From Methanobacteriota archaeon (GTDB lineage Archaea > Thermoplasmatota > Poseidoniia > Poseidoniales > Poseidoniaceae), in the NCBI GenBank assembly GCA_002727515.1, contig PBXF01000043.1, forward strand, positions 3,006 to 16,560: a stretch of 13,555 bases of DNA, written 5' to 3'. The position numbers and the translations under genes are program-made. The notes beneath the pieces are model-generated. The model was not told the origin of the DNA, did not search any database, and was given only the letters and a program-made list of their open reading frames with translations. This document shows positions 1 through 12,972 of this stretch, piece by piece. Position 1 is the stretch's first letter. Each line of letters opens with the position of its first letter.

Positions 1-1698
1 GTACCTGATGTTTCGATTGATGCTAACGCAATTCCTTCAAAGATACGATTGGATAGTGGAGATTCTGTTACTTGGAAAGTTGTGATAATCAACTCAGGCC
101 AAATACCAGTAAAGGGCAAGTTAGTTTACACATGGGACGGAATTGAATACGATGAGGGAGCATCTGGAGAACTAAGTATCCTAGCCGGTGAATCATATGT
201 TTGGGAAAGAACATTACAACCAAACAATGTAGGATCATACAATGCATCATTCCTTGCAGAATGGTTTACAGCTGATGGTTATTATGATAGTAATCCTCTA
301 AATTCATATGCCCAGGGAGAGGTCCAATATCTTGAACAGTTGAGGTTAGTATGGTCTAGGGCCTCAATGAGTTTGGTTGATGAAAATGGCGACAATGCAA
401 CAACTCCTTTCGATGCAGGAAAGACATATACAATATCTGTTAACTCAATATCTCAGGAGTCGGGCTCTGTAAATTATTCCTGTGAAGATGAATTAGGTTC
501 ACAGTTTGAATTGATTCCTATAACCGTTGCAAACAGTGGAGAATTTGTAAAAATTCAATGCACATTTACCGCTTCAGCACCTTATACAAACGTAATTATC
601 AAGCCAGACGACGCTGATGTCAGCGACCCAATAGATTGGAGTTTTGATACCAAAGAAGACTCTTCAAATATCGCTGATGAAGCAGGGGACATATCATTTG
701 CAACCGCAGGATTAATTGCAGTAATTGCATTGGTAATGATTGGAATACTAGTTGCAGCAGTTATTCTTACCAGAGATAGAGAAGAAGAAGTTGATAGGGA
801 TATATTCGACTATTGCCCTGCCTGTGATGGACAATTGGAAGGTTCTGAAGATAGATGTCCATATTGTTCTTTCAACCTAAAGAAAGCTCGAAGGCAATTC
901 CACGATTGTGAATCATGTGGAGAATCAATACCAGACCTGTTAGAAAATTGTCCGTATTGTGGTGCAGAACAAGACACAGGCAAATATTTCGAAAGAAGAG
1001 AGAGAAGAGTTGTGGAACGTGAAGAAATTGCTCTCCCTGAGGAAGAGGAAGAAATCGATCCTGAAACAATACACGCAACGGGATACGAAGATTTCGATGA
1101 AGCAATCAAGGAATTCGGATATGAATCAGATGACCTAGAAGGCGATTGGGACGATAGTATTGCGCAAGCCGAAGCAGAAGTTGAGGCAGCATACGATAGA
1201 AGAATCGCAATCGAGGAATCTCAAGAACTCGATGACGAAGAAGCCATGTCAATGTATACTACTACATTGAAATCAATTGAAGAAACATTCGAATCGCACG
1301 ATATTGATGCAATATTGAAAGATAAGGATATTCAAACGCATGATGTCGAAGATGTTGATGATTTATCTGCAAGTGACGCATCAATTAGGGCAAAACTGTA
1401 CGAAATAACTGGTGAAGAAGGCGTTATGCCTGGAGATGATGTAATGATTGGAATGGGCATCCAAGATCGCTCTCTTGCAGGTAATGCACTACCAGAGGAT
1501 GCCATGGACTTCTCATTCGATGACGAAGACGACCAATTGAATCCAGTTAAATCAGCAACTGAAGAGAACACAAGAAGAAGAAATCTGAGAAGGCGCTCAA
1601 AGAAACCTGAAGTGAAAACTGCTGAATGTGGCGCTTGTGGTTCAGAGATTCCAGTTGACGCAAAGGAATGTCCTGTTTGTGGTGCTAAGTTCGAGTGA
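1..1698 (+). CDS. Membrane-anchored protein with extracellular Ig-like domains and three cytosolic zinc ribbons (5' partial)
   Basis: The reading frame is open from base 1, so the start lies outside the window; 565 residues are visible. Residues about 1-225 are beta-rich and resemble CARDB/Ig-like domains of archaeal surface proteins (for example VTWKVVIINSG). One transmembrane helix spans about 233-257 and ends in a basic TRDR stop-transfer motif. On the inner side come two adjacent zinc ribbons (C272, C275, C286, C289 and C303, C306, C317, C320). A very acidic linker of about 200 residues follows, then a third ribbon at the C-terminus (C543, C546, C557, C560). All three have the same C-x2-C-x10-C-x2-C spacing. 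The architecture suggests a surface-to-cytoplasm scaffold or sensor, but no specific function is recognised. The small secreted protein gene downstream on the same strand may be co-transcribed. Confidence 0.85.
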   Translation, partial: VPDVSIDANAIPSKIRLDSGDSVTWKVVIINSGQIPVKGKLVYTWDGIEYDEGASGELSILAGESYVWERTLQPNNVGSYNASFLAEWFTADGYYDSNPLNSYAQGEVQYLEQLRLVWSRASMSLVDENGDNATTPFDAGKTYTISVNSISQESGSVNYSCEDELGSQFELIPITVANSGEFVKIQCTFTASAPYTNVIIKPDDADVSDPIDWSFDTKEDSSNIADEAGDISFATAGLIAVIALVMIGILVAAVILTRDREEEVDRDIFDYCPACDGQLEGSEDRCPYCSFNLKKARRQFHDCESCGESIPDLLENCPYCGAEQDTGKYFERRERRVVEREEIALPEEEEEIDPETIHATGYEDFDEAIKEFGYESDDLEGDWDDSIAQAEAEVEAAYDRRIAIEESQELDDEEAMSMYTTTLKSIEETFESHDIDAILKDKDIQTHDVEDVDDLSASDASIRAKLYEITGEEGVMPGDDVMIGMGIQDRSLAGNALPEDAMDFSFDDEDDQLNPVKSATEENTRRRNLRRRSKKPEVKTAECGACGSEIPVDAKECPVCGAKFE

Positions 1699-1845: not shown

Positions 1846-2409
1846 ATGAGACCTAAATATGCCATCAGGGCTTTTGTTCTGTTGGGTATAATTCTTGCAT
1901 CAAATATTGGATGCATTGGTCTTGTTCCTGCACGTGAATTTATTGAAGATGCTCGTGGAGAGCCTGAAGTCAAAGACGTCATCGAGAAAATTAAACTAAA
2001 TCATACATTTGTATCTGTTTTCCCAGATATTTCATCGACAGTTTATACTCACCAAGAAAGATTCAGTGTAGATGAGAATGTCAACGAAGTGAAGGTATAC
2101 ATTGGTGTTGCTATAGCAGGGCCGGATGACTTATTCCCTGACCTTGGCGCAGATTACCGATTTGTTGAAGCAACTTTGACAGATGCTAATGGTGATGTTG
2201 TATGGAGTCAAAAGTGCCAAAAAACCTGCAATCCTGCAGTATCTACTTTCCAAGAACCACTTGCTATTGGAACTTGGACTATGACAATTGATGCGAGAGG
2301 GTATGGAGAAGATCTTGTAAATACTTACAAAGATTCATTCGAACTCTATGTGCACTTATTCAAAGAGTGTACAGAATATCCAACTGAGGATAAATGCTCT
2401 TTTGATTAA
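1846..2409 (+). CDS. Small secreted or lipid-anchored protein, function unknown
   Basis: This 187-residue protein starts at an ATG with a strong ribosome binding site. Residues 1-22 form a signal-like segment: basic MRPK, a hydrophobic core at about 9-18, then a cysteine at 23. The NIGC before the cleavage point is an imperfect lipobox because position -3 is Asn rather than Leu, so lipid attachment is possible but not certain. The rest is beta-rich, compatible with one Ig-like or jelly-roll domain (about 65-172). Two close cysteine pairs, C124/C128 and C175/C184, could form disulfides outside the cell. I do not recognise a named family. It follows the zinc-ribbon membrane protein on the same strand after about 150 bases. 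Its TAA stop overlaps the stop of the convergent nuclease gene by four bases. Confidence 0.75.
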   Translation: MRPKYAIRAFVLLGIILASNIGCIGLVPAREFIEDARGEPEVKDVIEKIKLNHTFVSVFPDISSTVYTHQERFSVDENVNEVKVYIGVAIAGPDDLFPDLGADYRFVEATLTDANGDVVWSQKCQKTCNPAVSTFQEPLAIGTWTMTIDARGYGEDLVNTYKDSFELYVHLFKECTEYPTEDKCSFD

Positions 2410-3578
2410 GCGAGGCTTGAATCACAAGCATACCTTCTTGAACAGTTTTGACATTTACCGATTCGCTCATGGTTTCTTTTAGCTCCACCTTCAACCATTA
2501 TTCTTTGAATTTCTTTTGTCATATCCATTAATCGGTTATAATTTTCTTCATCCCAGATTATCTGATGAATGTTTTCACTCCCGTATCTGATAACACCATA
2601 TGGTGGCTTTCTTCCAGTTGTTGTTTCAACAAGATGGAGATAAGCAAGCAGTTGCATTTGATGTGATTTATGTGGCTTGTCAGGAACCTTCCCAGTTTTT
2701 TGTTCCATCGGAATAAACTCTCCATCAACTATGACTATCTGATCAGGCCTACCTCTTAGTCCAGTCTCATCATCCTTCAACAAACCTGCAGATTCCTCAT
2801 CATCAGAATATGCAACGTCCATCTTGTCATCAATTCCTGCATCTAATTTTGCAGTTTCTAATTCATTATCTGCGAGAAGGGCTTTTTGTAATTGCCACGA
2901 TGCTAGTAATGTCCAAATCATAGCCAAAACCGCCAAAATAAATCCGGCCTGGCTACGATTCTCAGCCCATGTCAACCCAATAGCATGAAGCATACAAATC
3001 ATAGCGCCAAATAATAATCCTGCCTCTACTCTACCTCCTTCTCCCCAGCCGCCTAAGAATCCTAGAGGCTGGAAAGTAAATGGTATCACAGTCTCATCGA
3101 AATTCTTGATTTCATTATATTCATCAATATTTGAATCAAATTTTAGATATTTTCTCCATGGCAGGTATATTGCTAAAATTGCAAGAATAAGCCAAGTTAG
3201 GGCTAGCATTGTTAGGTACTGAGATACACTTTCCAGAGACCTAGTTTCTTTGTCTAAAAGATAGAATAGAATTGCGTCTGAGACGAAAACAAGTATGATT
3301 GTAAACCACCATGACCAAATAATCAATGCTCTTTTTAGATCAATTTGTTTAGTTTTAAAATTTTGAACCCTTTGATGAATCTCGGCATGCTTAATTTTCC
3401 CTTTTTCTATTGCTTCGCCCTTACCCGTTGCACCTTCTTTCGCTAGCGCCCAAGACAAAGGGCAATAGGTATATCTTTCCAAATCTGAAGCTGATACATT
3501 TAGGGCTTTTTGCTTGTTATCAACCCAGAAACCATCATCATTTGGTGACGCAAATGACTGTCCCTGATTGGATTCCAT
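2406..3578 (-). CDS. Cas4/RecB-like PD-(D/E)XK nuclease with Fe-S cysteines and an inserted four-helix membrane segment
   Basis: Numbering is from the ATG at 3578 (390 residues). The N-terminus holds a Cas4-like start, SASDLERYTYCPLSWAL, with C39, then motif I (G-x3-H, H64). The nuclease core resumes at GLRGRPD (D279), E292-x-K294 (EQK) and a Q-rich QMQLLAY motif ending in Y313. The C-terminus has C376-x2-C379-x5-C385. Together with C39 this is the four-cysteine pattern of the Cas4/AddB iron-sulfur cluster. Between motif I and motif II lie about 215 residues instead of the usual few tens, with four hydrophobic helices near 84-108, 121-141, 184-205 and 210-231. The nuclease halves should fold together in the cytoplasm, next to the membrane. 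All catalytic residues are present, so activity is expected. In-frame starts further upstream exist (ATG 3617, TTG 3629); none has a clear ribosome site, so the start is uncertain. No CRISPR array or other cas gene is in the window. Confidence 0.85.
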   Translation of the reverse strand: MESNQGQSFASPNDDGFWVDNKQKALNVSASDLERYTYCPLSWALAKEGATGKGEAIEKGKIKHAEIHQRVQNFKTKQIDLKRALIIWSWWFTIILVFVSDAILFYLLDKETRSLESVSQYLTMLALTWLILAILAIYLPWRKYLKFDSNIDEYNEIKNFDETVIPFTFQPLGFLGGWGEGGRVEAGLLFGAMICMLHAIGLTWAENRSQAGFILAVLAMIWTLLASWQLQKALLADNELETAKLDAGIDDKMDVAYSDDEESAGLLKDDETGLRGRPDQIVIVDGEFIPMEQKTGKVPDKPHKSHQMQLLAYLHLVETTTGRKPPYGVIRYGSENIHQIIWDEENYNRLMDMTKEIQRIMVEGGAKRNHERIGKCQNCSRRYACDSSLA

Positions 3579-3733: not shown

Positions 3734-4333
3734 ATGACAGAATTATTGATTGACCGTGAGACATACGAGACCAATGCAGTTCACATTGGTACTCAACAGA
3801 AGAGTGCAGATATGGCACAGTTCATACAAGAGGTTCGCTCTGATGGACTTTACCTAATCGACATTGAAATCACTGACAGTCGTATTCGTTCCATTGCTCA
3901 ATTCATTACAAAATATAATCCAGCAAATGTAATGGTAGTAAGTGCAAGGCAATATGGTCAGAGACCAGCAAGGCTATTCGCTGAAGCAATTGGTGCTAAC
4001 GCAAGTGTTGGCAGATTTATTCCCGGCAGTTTGACGAACCCAGCTCTACGTTCATATGTAGAGCCAGATATCCTGTTTGTAACCGATCCAGCAGCAGACC
4101 AACAAGCACTGAAGGAAGCAGTAAATTCTGGACTTCCTATAGTTGGAATATGTGACGCAAACAACAATTTGAGAAATGTTGACTTGGCTCTACCTGCTAA
4201 TAACAAAGGACGAAGATCACTCGCTCTTCTATACTGGCTTCTTGCCAGGGAAGTCCTGAAAGTCCGTGAAGAAACCACAGACGAAGAATGGGCTAAAAAT
4301 AATGATTTAGAAGAGTGGGAATCCACCTTCTAA
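3734..4333 (+). CDS. rpsB: 30S ribosomal protein S2 (uS2), archaeal type
   Basis: The 199-residue product is a typical archaeal S2 in length and sequence. It is a structural protein of the small ribosomal subunit at the head-body junction. Clear family stretches include VHIGTQQKSADM near 16-27, RSDGLYLIDI near 35-44, VSARQYGQRPARLF near 69-82, RFIPGSLTNPA near 94-104, EPDILFVTDP near 109-118, and NNKGRRSLALLYWLLAREVL near the C-terminus. The ATG at 3734 has GGAG eight bases upstream. The C-terminal tail is short and acidic (DEEWAKNNDLEEWE). Many archaea place this gene beside enolase, RNA polymerase subunits or MEMO; here it is instead followed after 12 bases by a tRNA-dihydrouridine synthase, so the two are probably co-transcribed. 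Confidence 0.97.
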   Translation: MTELLIDRETYETNAVHIGTQQKSADMAQFIQEVRSDGLYLIDIEITDSRIRSIAQFITKYNPANVMVVSARQYGQRPARLFAEAIGANASVGRFIPGSLTNPALRSYVEPDILFVTDPAADQQALKEAVNSGLPIVGICDANNNLRNVDLALPANNKGRRSLALLYWLLAREVLKVREETTDEEWAKNNDLEEWESTF

Positions 4334-5378: not shown

Positions 5379-6476
5379 TTATTGATTTTCTAGTTCAGAA
5401 AGTGTTTTGCCAACTCTTTCAATTCTCCTAAATATTCTTTCTAAATCATCAATAGATTTTCTCTTTAGTAAATCAACAGTAGTTCCAACCAAACGGTATC
5501 CAAGTGGCAATCTGCCTCCTAGAAGGTTGAGAAGTAACATTTGGTCTCTTGGTTCAAGTGACTTTAATGATCTTGAAATTATTTCTGGAGAACAAGTATT
5601 ACTCTTGAGGTGCTTTAGAATTGAGTTTGGTACTGAAAGTCTTTGGAAACCGCCTTTCTTTAGCAGCCAATCTTCTCCTCTCCGCATATGTTGTGTAGTC
5701 ATTGCAGACCATAATGCAGTCGAAAGCCGGTCAGTTCTTGCAACTCTCTCAACCATACCTGTACCACGAAACCTCTCAAGTATTCTACCAACTCTTGGTT
5801 TCGGCCCTTCGCATTCTTCCGCAGCCTCATCAATTGAAATTGGTGAGCCTGAATTTAGTAGCATTTGAAAGACTTTTACTGAAAGAGAATCTGATTTATT
5901 TTCTCTTCCTGGTCTTTCTCCTAACAAACCTATGTCGGCCATAAATCTAGAAATGTCGTTTTCATTTTCAAGCAACGGCCCCCATTCTTTTATTCTGATT
6001 AGGGCACTTGGTTTTCCATCAGGTGGGAGTTCTATTTTCATTGTTGTTTTCTTACCTCTATTCCACAGGTCATCGAGTATCTTTATTCTCTGTTTGTGAA
6101 TAATCGTTGAGCGCGACTTCATATTTTCAATCGCATTTGTAATTGAGCCTCCAACGAGGTAGTATATTTTCCAGCCTTTTCCTGAAGTTGTAGATATTAT
6201 TCCTGCGGACACAAGTCTTGCAAAATGGTGATGGATTGCAGCAGGCGTTAATCCAAGTTCTTCAGCTAATTCCCTTGTTTCAAACCCTTTATCTGGGAAT
6301 TTGAGTAAATGCTCACTAAGAATTCTATGAATTGGGGAAAAGGTTCCTGATTCATCTGATGCCGAATCTTCACGTCTTCTGTGTAGGCATAATGTGTCGA
6401 TAAGCCAAGAAATTAGATTGTCTCTATCCTTCTTACCCGCAGGTAATGGAATTTCTTCGAGACGCAAATCGAACAT
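5379..6476 (-). CDS. Double winged-helix transcriptional regulator, soluble
   Basis: Translation from the ATG at 6476 gives 365 residues; a TTG at 6509 would add eleven that look non-conserved in character. A first winged helix spans about 46-110, with ELAEELGLTPAAIHHHFARL as recognition region and an ArsR/MarR-like wing ending in WKIYYLV. A second helix-turn-helix region lies near 198-260 (ISIDEAAEECEGPKPRVGRILERF). The C-terminal 100 residues are helical and basic, with no recognised ligand domain. The protein is expected to bind DNA; its targets are unknown. There is no clear ribosome site before the ATG. A 30-bp palindrome just upstream overlaps a TATA-like stretch, which would suit autoregulation. 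Two more winged-helix genes lie directly upstream on the same strand. Confidence 0.75.
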   Translation of the reverse strand: MFDLRLEEIPLPAGKKDRDNLISWLIDTLCLHRRREDSASDESGTFSPIHRILSEHLLKFPDKGFETRELAEELGLTPAAIHHHFARLVSAGIISTTSGKGWKIYYLVGGSITNAIENMKSRSTIIHKQRIKILDDLWNRGKKTTMKIELPPDGKPSALIRIKEWGPLLENENDISRFMADIGLLGERPGRENKSDSLSVKVFQMLLNSGSPISIDEAAEECEGPKPRVGRILERFRGTGMVERVARTDRLSTALWSAMTTQHMRRGEDWLLKKGGFQRLSVPNSILKHLKSNTCSPEIISRSLKSLEPRDQMLLLNLLGGRLPLGYRLVGTTVDLLKRKSIDDLERIFRRIERVGKTLSELENQ

Positions 6477-6513
6477 GGTACATTCCGATAGTTGAAGGGT
6501 TTTGAACAATGCG

Positions 6514-6543
6514 CAATAAATGTCTCTCGAGAGACGATTATTG
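6514..6543. repeat. 30-bp imperfect palindrome, probable operator
   Basis: The centre GTCTCTCGAGAGAC (6522-6535) is a perfect 14-bp palindrome. Pairing continues outward so that 13 of 15 base pairs match between 6514 and 6543; the mismatches are 6520/6537 and 6521/6536. It begins two bases after the membrane-anchored regulator gene stops and lies about 40 bases before the next regulator's ATG. On the minus strand the distal arm reads TTTATTG, which could be the TATA box of that gene. A bound dimer would then block its promoter. Archaeal termination usually does not need hairpins, so an operator is preferred over a terminator. Confidence 0.6.
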
Positions 6544-6545
6544 AT

Positions 6546-7193
6546 TCATCTTCGGTCATCGGACCATTCATAGTCAATCTTTCTGTTTCCAATCCATAAA
6601 TCAGAATCAGACAGATGTGGTGCGAGTTCGATTCTATCTTCTCTAAGAATTCCTCTTCTTCTAAGAACTTGAACAGCAGAGTGAACAGATGCTCTCGATC
6701 GGCCAATACGTCTGGCAAGTGCAGCCTGTGACCTTGGTATACCATTCACTTTAATATCCTCAACAATTGTTTTCTGAACAAGAGATAACCCAATTGGCAT
6801 TTGTCTTGCAGCCTCATTTTCTCCTACCTTCATGCCCCTTAGCACTTCAACCTGACTAGGAGCGCCTGCAAAGTAACAAGTTCTTCCGTTAACTGAAATT
6901 ATTGTAATGGATTTTCTACTAGATAATACATCAAGATGGTGTCTTAATGTGCCGTTTGCTGCAGATAGATTTGATTGTAACTCTCTATAACAAAGTCCTG
7001 GATTTTTTTCGAGAGTAAATAGGATTCTTCTTCTCAGCGGATGTTCAAGTTCCCGTAGTTTTGTATTTACGGTTCCTCTTGGGAATGCTAATGCGCCAAT
7101 TTGGGCACCCAGCCCTAAGATTCCACCTGTAGCACCAGTGATGCCAGCAGCGAGCCAAGGGCGCTGGCTTATCCACTGCTTGATTAGTGCCAT
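6546..7193 (-). CDS. Membrane-anchored double winged-helix regulator
   Basis: The 215-residue protein begins with a short basic leader and one hydrophobic, glycine- and alanine-rich segment at about 13-37 that looks like a membrane anchor. Two winged-helix domains follow. The first is near 49-110, opening with ELEHPLRRRILFTLEKNPG in ArsR fashion, with a recognition helix around ANGTLRHHLDVL. The second is near 136-192, with SQAALARRIGRSRASVHSAVQVL. The acidic C-terminal tail is short. The protein should be held at the cytoplasmic membrane face while contacting DNA, an arrangement seen in several archaeal regulators; its signal and targets are not evident. The ATG at 7193 has no ribosome site. 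A TATA-like CTATTAC about 26 bases upstream would allow a nearly leaderless message. It sits 50 bases after the HxlR gene. Confidence 0.75.
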   Translation of the reverse strand: MALIKQWISQRPWLAAGITGATGGILGLGAQIGALAFPRGTVNTKLRELEHPLRRRILFTLEKNPGLCYRELQSNLSAANGTLRHHLDVLSSRKSITIISVNGRTCYFAGAPSQVEVLRGMKVGENEAARQMPIGLSLVQKTIVEDIKVNGIPRSQAALARRIGRSRASVHSAVQVLRRRGILREDRIELAPHLSDSDLWIGNRKIDYEWSDDRR

Positions 7194-7243
7194 AGAGTAA
7201 AACTACAGCAACTCATTTGTAATAGATTCGGTAAGATGTGCGA

Positions 7244-7750
7244 TTATTTGCTTCTCACAGAACCTGTTTGTATCTTTAGGTGTGCAACCAAAGGAGAGAG
7301 TAGACGTCCACAAGTGACCCCATGGGCAGACAATACGTAATCCACTCTAACAGGAGGGCCGTCAGTTACCTTTCTCTCAACTAAACCTTCATCGGTTAGA
7401 AATTTGAGTTTGTCAGATAATGTTCTTGAAGAAATTCCTGAAAGAAGAGACTTCAGTTGATTGAATCTTCTTGCGCCTGCGATATACAAAGTCGAAAGGA
7501 TTTCTATTGTCCATCTACTACCAAAAACATGTAATGCTTCTACAGCTGCTTCAACTTCCCAATCTGTATCCCAGGGAGCACTACCAGAAAATTCTGCGAG
7601 TTGCGCTCTAATTTTGCCACCATTTTCGATAGTATCCTCGATATTTTGTTTTATGTCCCCTATTACTTGAATTGGTAAAACTAGAGGAGGCTCGGGCATA
7701 ATCCTCGGAGTAGATGTCGGTGATAAAACATAGTGTAGGAAAAACGCCAT
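7244..7750 (-). CDS. HxlR-family transcriptional regulator
   Basis: The 168-residue protein carries one HxlR-type winged helix at about 68-160. FGSRWTIEILSTLYIAGARR matches the family's GGKWT...IL helix. ISSRTLSDKLKFLTDEGLVER is the recognition helix and start of the wing, and VDYVLSAHG the family-typical strand and turn. The N-terminal cysteine common in redox-responsive HxlR proteins is absent here; the only cysteine is C147. The first 60 residues have no clear domain. The ATG overlaps the TGA of the upstream HAD/crotonase fusion by one base (TGATG), and there is no ribosome site, so translation is probably coupled. This placement makes it a candidate regulator of the fatty-acid oxidation gene, which is inference. 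A second ATG at 7699 is possible. Confidence 0.88.
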   Translation of the reverse strand: MAFFLHYVLSPTSTPRIMPEPPLVLPIQVIGDIKQNIEDTIENGGKIRAQLAEFSGSAPWDTDWEVEAAVEALHVFGSRWTIEILSTLYIAGARRFNQLKSLLSGISSRTLSDKLKFLTDEGLVERKVTDGPPVRVDYVLSAHGVTCGRLLSPLVAHLKIQTGSVRSK

Positions 7751-10907: not shown

Positions 10908-10913
10908 CCACCT
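10908..10913 (-). promoter_or_regulatory. Shine-Dalgarno site overlapping the TYW1 stop codon
   Basis: AGGTGG on the minus strand precedes the TTG at 10903 by four bases and shares two bases with the TAG of TYW1. This favours translation of the glycosyltransferase from the rare TTG start in a shared message. Confidence 0.5.
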
Positions 10914-11913
10914 ATTGAATGACTTTGAGATGTTTTACAGGGTCAGCCACACCCAAATCCTCAGGGAAGAACATTGTCGCTTCTGGAACTGGAATTGGTA
11001 CAATTTCTTTTCCAACGAGAGCAACTCTACTTGGCGGTGAATCGTCCAATAGTTTTCTGTTAGTGAGTGGCGCTAATGCATTTGAAAATTCCAATATGTC
11101 GTCGTGGAAAGGCATATTTTCAGAAGTAAGGTTTTCTCTTGAATTCCCAACATGCACATATCCCTTACATTCAATCCAATCAGGATCTGCACGATTGTCT
11201 AAAGCGGCGTATTGTGGAATGTGTTCCGGATTCATATTTTTGCCTTTAATCAAAGTATGACGGCAGACAATCCGAGTGTCTAGGCTTGGCAAAAGGTCAA
11301 TCGTTTGTTCAAATTTATCCCAAGCTGCTGCATTCCATTTTGGCCTGCATATCTCATCAAACACTTCCTTATTAGGAGCATCAACGGATACATACAATTG
11401 AGTTGGTAGAGTGTCCAGTTTTTCAATAACTTTAGGCAGTGTTCCATTGGTAACTAACATTGTTGTCATACCGTGAGAGTGACATAGTTCCATGTATTCC
11501 GATAGACGATTGTATAACGTAGGCTCCCCATTGAGTGAAATTGCAACATGCTTAGGGTTTTGTGCATCGAGAAACTTTTCTCTTGGTACTTTGGGATTTC
11601 CACCAAATCCAGAAAGAAGTCTCCTTTGAGCTCTTACAGATTCATAAAGCATCTCAAGAGGGTCTTGATCGGATAATTCAAGTGAATCCATGTGCGGCTC
11701 CCTCCAACAATAGGAACATGCTAAATTACATTGGTCTACTACGGGAGACATTTGCATACAGTTATGACTTGCAACCCCGTAGAATTTACCTTTGTAGCAC
11801 TGCCTATCTCTAAGTAGAGATTCCTTGGTCCAGTGGCATACTTTGACTCCACCATGTTCTCCAACAATGTGGTAACGTTGCTTTTGCAACTTCGACTTCA
11901 GGAGGGGGTCCAT
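10912..11913 (-). CDS. taw1: S-adenosylmethionine-dependent 4-demethylwyosine synthase (TYW1/Taw1)
   Basis: This radical SAM enzyme condenses N1-methylguanosine-37 of tRNA-Phe with a pyruvate-derived unit to make the tricyclic imidazoline base of wyosine derivatives. From the ATG at 11913 it has 333 residues. The radical SAM cluster motif is C62-x3-C66-x2-C69 (CNLACSYCW). A second cluster set lies at C26, C39 and C52. As I recall, these six numbers match characterised archaeal TYW1 exactly, which supports this start over the ATG at 12012. Further family marks are ISLNGEPTLY, TNGTLP, YVSVDAP, and the CRHTLIKGKNM and ECKGYVHVG segments. The flavodoxin domain of eukaryotic TYW1 is absent, as usual in archaea. 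It is the first gene of the minus-strand run and is divergent from the AlkB gene. Confidence 0.95.
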   Translation of the reverse strand: MDPLLKSKLQKQRYHIVGEHGGVKVCHWTKESLLRDRQCYKGKFYGVASHNCMQMSPVVDQCNLACSYCWREPHMDSLELSDQDPLEMLYESVRAQRRLLSGFGGNPKVPREKFLDAQNPKHVAISLNGEPTLYNRLSEYMELCHSHGMTTMLVTNGTLPKVIEKLDTLPTQLYVSVDAPNKEVFDEICRPKWNAAAWDKFEQTIDLLPSLDTRIVCRHTLIKGKNMNPEHIPQYAALDNRADPDWIECKGYVHVGNSRENLTSENMPFHDDILEFSNALAPLTNRKLLDDSPPSRVALVGKEIVPIPVPEATMFFPEDLGVADPVKHLKVIQ

Positions 11914-11950
11914 CGCCTTAGCGAAATCACAATCTGTTTTCAAACCAACG

Positions 11951-11970
11951 CATATGTAGTTGTATATTAT
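11951..11970. promoter_or_regulatory. Candidate divergent promoter between TYW1 and the AlkB gene
   Basis: The 66-bp gap holds two TATA-like stretches. On the minus strand ATAATATA (11970-11963) would start a TYW1 message near 11940 with a leader of about 27 bases. On the plus strand CATATGTA (11951-11958) is centred about 26 bases before the ATG at 11980, which would suit a leaderless AlkB message. The second is a weak TATA match. The boxes are adjacent, so the two genes may compete for or share control. Confidence 0.3.
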
Positions 11971-11979
11971 CGTCTGACT

Positions 11980-12972
11980 ATGCAAGAAAGGGTGGAATCG
12001 TGGACTCCACATTTGCTTGGGTTTCTTTTACCGATAATTACCGTGCTTGGTATTCTTAAAGGAGGATATTGGTCGATTTCTGGGATTGCATATGCAATAG
12101 GTCTTTGTCCAATAATCGATGCTATATCACCCAAAGCGGCTCCTACTAGGAGTCAAAATTCAGATAGGCCTTGGAATACAATACTATATCTTCACACTCT
12201 TGCTTATTTATCATGTATCGGAATTCTTCTCTGGCACACCACACAAGAAGGTTTCACAATATCTGTTATTCTAGGAGGCCTGTCAGTGGGCGTAGTAGGT
12301 GGAATTTCAGGAATAATCAATGCACATGAAGCAGGGCACAGAAAAAAGGGCTCGCTTTTGTGGAGGATGTCGAGGCTAAACTTGCTACTTGTCATGTACT
12401 TGCATTTTACAACAGAGCACAATCATGGTCATCATAGAAATTATGCCACAGAAAAAGATCCTGCATCCGCTCCAGAAGGTAGATCGTTCTACACCCAATT
12501 ATTGATGACAATCCCACTACAATTCATCTCAGCCTGGAAAACTCATAGCGCCAAGGGTGCTAAAATCTACCAGAATACAGTTTTTCATGGGTTTATTATT
12601 CAGTTAGCACTTCTTGCATCATTATGGGTACTAAATCCTAATATTATGTACGCGTTTTTGGTTCAAGCAGGTTTAGCGATTGTATTGTTGGAATATGTGA
12701 ACTACATCGAACACTATGGTCTAGTAAGAGAGGTCGGCGAGAAACATACTCAAATGCATTCATGGGAGTACAGGGGAGTTTGGTCTAGGTGGACTTTGTT
12801 GGAACTACCTCTTCATCCCGCACACCACTTGAAGGCAAGTTCTCCTCTCTGGGAACTTCGTGCCCAAGAGAATGCTCCACAGTTACCTTTTGGCTACTAC
12901 ACTATGTTTTGGATAGCATTAATTCCTCCTCTGTGGAAGGGTTTGATGAAAAAACAAATCAGAAATCTGTAG
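11980..12972 (+). CDS. alkB: AlkB-family membrane di-iron alkane/fatty-acid hydroxylase
   Basis: The 330-residue integral membrane protein is expected to hydroxylate terminal carbons of alkanes or similar chains, using oxygen and electrons from a rubredoxin-type partner. It has about six hydrophobic helices. All nine histidine ligand positions known for AlkB can be placed: H116 and H120 in HEAGHRKK, H147, H151 and H152 in EHNHGHH, H245 in NYIEHYGL, and H279, H282 and H283 in LPLHPAHH. DPAS after box 2, HSWE after the NYIEHYGL box, and APQLPFGY with ALIPPLW at the end are also typical. Box 3 differs from the usual LQRHSDHH but keeps the histidines. No rubredoxin domain is fused, and none is encoded in the window. 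Substrate range is not readable. The frame is open back to 11833, but that stretch overlaps TYW1; a GTG at 11992 is an alternative start. Confidence 0.93.
   Translation: MQERVESWTPHLLGFLLPIITVLGILKGGYWSISGIAYAIGLCPIIDAISPKAAPTRSQNSDRPWNTILYLHTLAYLSCIGILLWHTTQEGFTISVILGGLSVGVVGGISGIINAHEAGHRKKGSLLWRMSRLNLLLVMYLHFTTEHNHGHHRNYATEKDPASAPEGRSFYTQLLMTIPLQFISAWKTHSAKGAKIYQNTVFHGFIIQLALLASLWVLNPNIMYAFLVQAGLAIVLLEYVNYIEHYGLVREVGEKHTQMHSWEYRGVWSRWTLLELPLHPAHHLKASSPLWELRAQENAPQLPFGYYTMFWIALIPPLWKGLMKKQIRNL

What the first reader, a model, noticed from the sequence alone, without database searches (positions are those of the whole stretch)
2406..3578. Cas4-like nuclease split by a four-helix membrane insert
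The iron-sulfur cysteines and all PD-(D/E)XK motifs are intact, but about 150 extra residues with four hydrophobic helices sit between motif I and motif II. This would tether a potentially active Fe-S nuclease to the membrane. No cas genes or repeats are nearby. Possible roles are processing of DNA at the membrane (uptake, phage entry, conjugation) or membrane-linked repair. I do not know a described system with this layout.
Basis: partly seen in the sequence, partly recalled or inferred. Interest (0 to 1): 0.72.

Follow-up and report, generated by a model that had tools for sequence, protein, structure and literature searches.

The report
Membrane-embedded Cas4-type DNA nuclease
A DNA-cutting enzyme of the Cas4 family in marine archaea has membrane helices threaded through its middle, and in related archaea the same enzyme is cut into two membrane-anchored genes, pointing to an unstudied nuclease that works at the cell membrane.

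The parts
2406..3578 (-). membrane-embedded Cas4-family nuclease (390 aa)
3369..3497 (-). N-terminal nuclease piece, residues 28-70: first Fe-S cysteine C39 and motif I H64
   Evidence: 106 of 106 and 105 of 106 rows; motif names recalled
2766..3368 (-). insert region, residues 71-271, with four hydrophobic helices
   Evidence: hydropathy; model helices 55-110, 115-138, 183-204, 208-247
3255..3311 (-). TM1 (90-108), continuous with the motif I helix in the model
3162..3218 (-). TM2 (121-139)
2973..3029 (-). TM3 (184-202)
2889..2945 (-). TM4 (212-230); the model helix runs on to residue 247
2619..2765 (-). motifs II and III plus QxxxY, residues 272-320 (GRPD279, E292xK294, Q309, Y313)
2424..2453 (-). 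Fe-S cysteines C376, C379, C385
   Evidence: 106 of 106 rows each
3734..4333 (+). ribosomal protein uS2 gene, divergent conserved neighbour
   Evidence: PF00318; found in 79 of 80 and 20 of 20 related loci
1846..2409 (+). 187-aa ORF, lipoprotein-like by eye, convergent conserved neighbour
   Evidence: no Pfam match; 78 of 80 and 19 of 20 loci
1..1698 (+). zinc-ribbon protein with a hydrophobic segment by eye, conserved second neighbour, open at the window's end
   Evidence: PF12773; 76 of 80 and 19 of 20 loci

Best explanation
This is a membrane-embedded member of the Cas4/RecB-type nuclease family. The N-terminal piece (first Fe-S cysteine, motif I) and the C-terminal piece (motifs II-III, three more cysteines) fold into one cytoplasmic nuclease. 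They are joined by membrane helices that leave from the motif I helix and return just before motif II, so both halves lie on the cytoplasmic side. It most likely trims or degrades cellular DNA held at the membrane, in repair or clearance of broken or trapped chromosomal DNA, rather than serving CRISPR or uptake. Shown by computation: family, motifs, hydrophobic helices, predicted closed fold, conservation, split form, neighbours. Inferred: topology, Fe-S binding, nuclease activity, substrate and pathway.
Against: In the window's own lineage the neighbours (uS2, a 187-aa ORF, a zinc-ribbon protein) say nothing of DNA repair. The SMC link is confined to one related group, so 10 of 14 is not 10 independent events; 4 of 14 split loci and the fused loci searched lack it. 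In Poseidoniales rows the inner-outer charge bias is unclear (K+R 10-25% in, 12-13% out) and the hairpin repeat is not detectable. The ScpA call is weak: PF02616 E 0.0012 and 0.018, under cut-off, in 2 of 5 proteins; no ScpA model in NCBIfam for 5 proteins. In the order as a whole only 148 of 243 genomes match. Nuclease activity is not shown.
Confidence: 0.5

Rival explanations
1. An entry-defence nuclease that works like SNIPE: held at the membrane so that it cuts viral DNA as it is injected while sparing the chromosome.
For: [quoted passage not shown] Poseidoniales-type genomes lack Cas1 (0 of 81), and solo-Cas4 has been suggested to act in defence or repair (PMC5704561, abstract and one section). 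PADLOC Cas4 and DruK profiles match the nuclease half.
Against: Present in 141 of 145 genomes of the family with fixed neighbours, unlike patchily distributed defence genes (inference). No defence gene identified among the neighbours scanned with Pfam (not every neighbour was scanned; PADLOC was run on only two window neighbours, no hit). No match in phage records; neighbours in two lineages are DNA-maintenance genes. The PADLOC hits may only reflect the shared nuclease fold.
Confidence: 0.27
2. A dedicated SMC/ScpA partner: a membrane-anchored nuclease that acts on condensin-held DNA during segregation, with the fused forms keeping that role elsewhere.
For: In 10 of 14 split genomes the pair follows smc and a scpA-like gene, and in the nine loci measured the genes overlap or are at most 34 nt apart. 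In Thermoplasmatales scpB lies away from scpA (PMC7055376, passages only).
Against: Seen in one related group only; fused genes, the window's included, have no smc in the stretches searched.
Confidence: 0.13
3. The helices are only an anchor and the substrate is not DNA (RNA or another phosphodiester).
For: One relative carries a C-terminal TRAM domain, which I recall as RNA-binding, and the window gene sits beside a ribosomal protein gene.
Against: The 28 best-ranked solved folds are nearly all DNA nucleases or helicase-nucleases by title; the TRAM fusion was seen in one protein only.
Confidence: 0.08
4. Assembly, frameshift or gene-fusion artefact.
For: None found.
Against: Same architecture in more than a hundred genomes from many assemblies; insert conserved in sequence within Poseidoniales.
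Confidence: 0.02

Closest known systems
Cas4 family (PF01930 / TIGR00372), including CRISPR Cas4 of solved Cas4-Cas1-Cas2 complexes (8d3l, 7mi4)
   Different: membrane helices between motif I and II; no Cas1 in Poseidoniales-type genomes; two-gene form in one subgroup
solo-Cas4 (PMC5704561)
   Same: chromosomal, outside cas loci, vertical inheritance suggested for the group by that paper
   Different: the paper's text does not use 'transmembrane' (count 0) and its one 'membrane' passage is about another protein; no split form in the section read
SNIPE (PMC13190303)
   Same: nuclease held at the membrane with the catalytic part in the cytoplasm (shown for SNIPE, predicted here)
   Different: GIY-YIG fold with one N-terminal helix and DUF4041, against a PD-(D/E)XK Fe-S nuclease interrupted by paired helices; SNIPE is a defence gene found in a minority of genomes, this one is in nearly all sampled genomes of a family
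ACE1, Argonaute-associated Cas4 family protein (9iab, 9iac)
   Different: known here only from the PDB titles; Argonaute-associated by title

Membership tests
Cas4 family (PF01930/TIGR00372) | profile score over curated cut-off | tested here: met
   50.6 vs 22.7 and 70 vs 65 bits
Cas4 family (PF01930/TIGR00372) | RecB-type motifs I-III and QxxxY | tested here: met
   H 105, D 106, E/D 106, K 106, Q 101, Y 106 of 106
Cas4 family (PF01930/TIGR00372) | four conserved cysteines | tested here: met
   106 of 106 at each
Cas4 family (PF01930/TIGR00372) | Cas4 fold | tested here: met
Cas4 family (PF01930/TIGR00372) | Fe-S cluster and nuclease activity | not testable with these tools
   needs protein
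CRISPR-associated Cas4 | gene in a cas adaptation module, Cas1 in the genome | tested here: not met
   no other cas gene among 13 window ORFs; 0 of 81 Poseidoniales-type genomes with Cas1; the window's own genome is not held
solo-Cas4 | cas4 gene outside cas and mobile-element contexts | tested here: met
   window neighbours and conserved neighbours in related loci; no match in phage records
SNIPE | DUF4041 plus GIY-YIG nuclease | tested here: not met
   Pfam scan shows only PF01930 and PF12705 above cut-off
SNIPE | blocks phage at injection | not testable with these tools
   needs infection assays
ComEC-linked DNA uptake | ComEC in the genome | tested here: not met
   PF03772 over cut-off in 0 of 389 phylum genomes (2 weak matches under it); control rings in 10 of 14

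The most novel reading that the evidence does not exclude
Thermoplasmatota carry an unrecognised membrane nuclease in which one Cas4 active site and Fe-S cluster are assembled across membrane hairpins, in one lineage from two separate single-helix proteins co-encoded with condensin (SMC-ScpA). It would form a membrane-anchored machine that processes chromosomal DNA.
Probability: 0.3. Interest if true: 0.87.

Novelty: new variant of a known kind. Interest (0 to 1): 0.71.

Why it matters
Cas4 is best known as a soluble enzyme of CRISPR spacer acquisition; what solo-Cas4 does is an open question (PMC5704561, abstract). A membrane form, present in 141 of 145 sampled genomes of one family of marine Poseidoniales and split into two genes in relatives (one C-half homologue is named Cuniculiplasma), gives a direct handle: topology mapping, two-half complementation and SMC pull-down can each be tried. 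If the halves assemble, one nuclease active site and Fe-S cluster would be shared by two membrane proteins, an arrangement that I do not know of from elsewhere (recall, not a search).

Tried and rejected
First AF2 run on 20 close homologues gave pLDDT 54.6 and was not used. phmmer of the single sequence against the PDB found nothing; the family profile found Cas4, with weak matches to Dna2 and to designed helical proteins. PF01930 in the genome search missed 2 of 5 genomes known to hold the gene, so presence was counted with the protein query. My first guess that the split group were methanogens was not borne out: MCR absent in all 11 genomes tested, 8 of them from the split group, and one C-half homologue is named Cuniculiplasma. 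The paper search for Cas4 with Methanomassiliicoccales therefore bears on another group.

Artefact, CRISPR membership and ComEC uptake were rejected on the counts given. Fused or split as the ancestral form is unresolved: FastTree 0.88 for a fused clade, IQ-TREE support only 21; the whole membrane family has UFBoot 91 and the split clade 96, on 73 sequences with 8 soluble outgroups. Repeat homology of the two hairpins is clear in the 67 non-Poseidoniales rows (hhalign prob 98.3, E 1.3e-14; reversed controls E 0.003-0.006) but not visible within the Poseidoniales rows (prob 0.5). Helix counts at a 1.3 threshold among 154 distinct full-length ORFs: 4 in 128, 3 in 16, 2 in 5, 8 in 4, 5 in 1, so 17 of 154 are odd by this measure; the 16 with 3 are Poseidoniales loci, and I take one aligned helix to be under threshold but did not re-score them. 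Distribution outside Thermoplasmatota was not established: protein listings were capped at 120 rows and I had no handle to a genome of another phylum; the plasmid search gave 4 partial, nuclease-half matches.

Absence in print rests on searches of the open PubMed Central library only (51, 95 and 100 were on other aspects); (six phrases such as 'membrane-bound Cas4', 'split Cas4') found 0 papers. Papers beyond those cited were seen as listings only.

Full report
What is there. The minus-strand ORF 3578..2406 encodes 390 aa. Its C-terminal half matches Cas4 profiles above the curated cut-offs and its N-terminal piece carries the first Fe-S cysteine and the motif I histidine (motif names recalled). 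Between them are four hydrophobic segments, which 1 of 2000 shuffles equalled. H64 and D279 are 214 residues apart, against 18-20 or 41-42 in six soluble relatives.

It is a conserved gene. All 120 listed protein homologues of the first search (of 1095 with E <= 0.001) cover at least 97% of the query. The genome-contig scan kept 80 loci (of 131 relatives), whose best segments are 51-96% identical over nearly the whole query. The gene is in 141 of 145 sampled genomes of G002's family but 148 of 243 of its order, so much of the rest of the order seems to lack it; genome completeness is not told. The window and L001 differ with dN 0.016 and dS 0.350, one pair only. uS2 is found in 79 of 80 and 20 of 20 related loci, the 187-aa ORF in 78 and 19, the zinc-ribbon gene in 76 and 19; some loci end at contig ends.

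The family is wide in the phylum. In 389 sampled Thermoplasmatota genomes 249 had a match at E <= 0.001, a count that may also take in other Cas4-type nucleases; 81 of these are strong hits (E <= 7.1e-87) that I call Poseidoniales-type by score. With a family profile, 223 of 300 genomes of another class matched at E <= 1e-5, of two main kinds: about 330-aa fused proteins and about 180-aa frames. Helix numbers are mostly 4, with 2-helix (L123, L124, L126, L125, L130) and 8-helix forms (L128, L176, L177, L178) (odd counts are told under Tried and rejected). Outside Poseidoniales the two hairpins are homologous to each other, so the insert looks like a module that has been multiplied.

The split form. 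The 180-aa frames turned out to be C-terminal halves. I fetched 14 of the 15 such genomes that I count in the capped listing (G523 was not fetched): L166-L173 and L265-L270. All 14 have an N-half directly upstream on the same strand that ends in a hydrophobic helix, while the C-half frame begins with one. The helices were scored in 10 and judged by eye in L266, L267, L269 and L270 (the pattern was too strict for these). L173 and L270 N-halves were read from three-frame translations, and in L172 the C-half helix lies ahead of the first usual start codon. In the nine loci measured the two genes overlap by 4 nt or are 0 to 17 nt apart; in L170, L171, L173 and L270 the frames overlap more or the start is unclear. 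Motif residues and cysteines are present in both halves by eye; I did not count them by script. Two genomes (G117, G550) have a split pair besides a fused gene (L116 and L171; L174 and L172), so these are paralogues there. One of the seven homologues found for a C-half is named Cuniculiplasma.

Context. Cas1 is in 79 of 389 phylum genomes (77 over cut-off) and in none of the 81 Poseidoniales-type ones. In a genome with CRISPR the CRISPR Cas4 is a different, soluble gene beside Cas1: in G347 Cas1 is at C24:12021-12836 and Cas4 at C24:12866-13333, while the membrane form is on C54. ComEC is over cut-off in 0 of 389. In 10 of 14 split genomes the order is SMC, a ScpA-like gene, N-half, C-half, TrpRS; FEN1 is found in 9 and a Rad51-family gene in 8 of these 10, on the other strand where placed. 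The ScpA call rests on position and weak PF02616 scores in 2 of 5, with nothing from NCBIfam. In 21 of 69 non-Poseidoniales loci (59 fused, 10 split; the 21 are all fused) a TPD (PF14811) gene lies directly upstream on the same strand; its human relative C15ORF41/CDIN1 (the link from PF14811 to it is recalled) is a predicted PD-(D/E)XK nuclease similar to archaeal resolvases, with no activity detected (PMC7261414, passages). These loci are related by descent and not independent. No defence gene was identified in the neighbours that I scanned; not every neighbour was scanned.

Mechanism. A mostly even number of helices between two halves of one active site, a split placed between two helices, and the inner-loop charge bias outside Poseidoniales say that both halves face the cytoplasm, where an Fe-S nuclease would be expected. 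The nuclease would therefore meet DNA at the inner face of the membrane. Chromosome or repair work is favoured over entry defence by near-universal presence in the family, fixed neighbours, and DNA-maintenance neighbours in two other lineages. It is not proven: SNIPE (PMC13190303) shows that a membrane nuclease can be an entry defence and that membrane tethering keeps it off the chromosome.

Known or new. By family it is a Cas4-type solo nuclease. Its membrane architecture and two-gene form did not turn up in the paper searches that I made. The 2017 Cas4 survey (PMC5704561: abstract, one section, term search) has no occurrence of 'transmembrane' in its text.

Noticed in passing
L166-L173, L265-L270: Cas4-type nuclease encoded as two adjacent genes, each with one membrane helix, in 14 of 14 loci examined.
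   Followed up: yes
L265-L269, L271-L274: The split pair lies between a ScpA-like gene and TrpRS behind an SMC gene; FEN1 and a Rad51-family gene are on the opposite strand in most.
   Followed up: partly
L128, L176, L177, L178: Eight-helix versions of the fused protein.
   Followed up: partly
L127:4142-5887: Membrane Cas4-like protein with a C-terminal TRAM domain and many hydrophobic segments ahead of the nuclease half.
   Followed up: no
G005:C6:85807-86945: Second, degenerate copy of the gene with TGA stops in the frame, beside an intact copy on C7.
   Followed up: no
G301, G380, G598, G571: Longer frames (485-497 aa) with extra residues near query residues 104-117, close to the loop between the first two helices.
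   Followed up: no
window 10912-12012 (-): Radical SAM protein with a wyosine-formation domain.
   Followed up: no
window 5379-7750 (-): Three consecutive HTH regulators, one of HxlR type.
   Followed up: no
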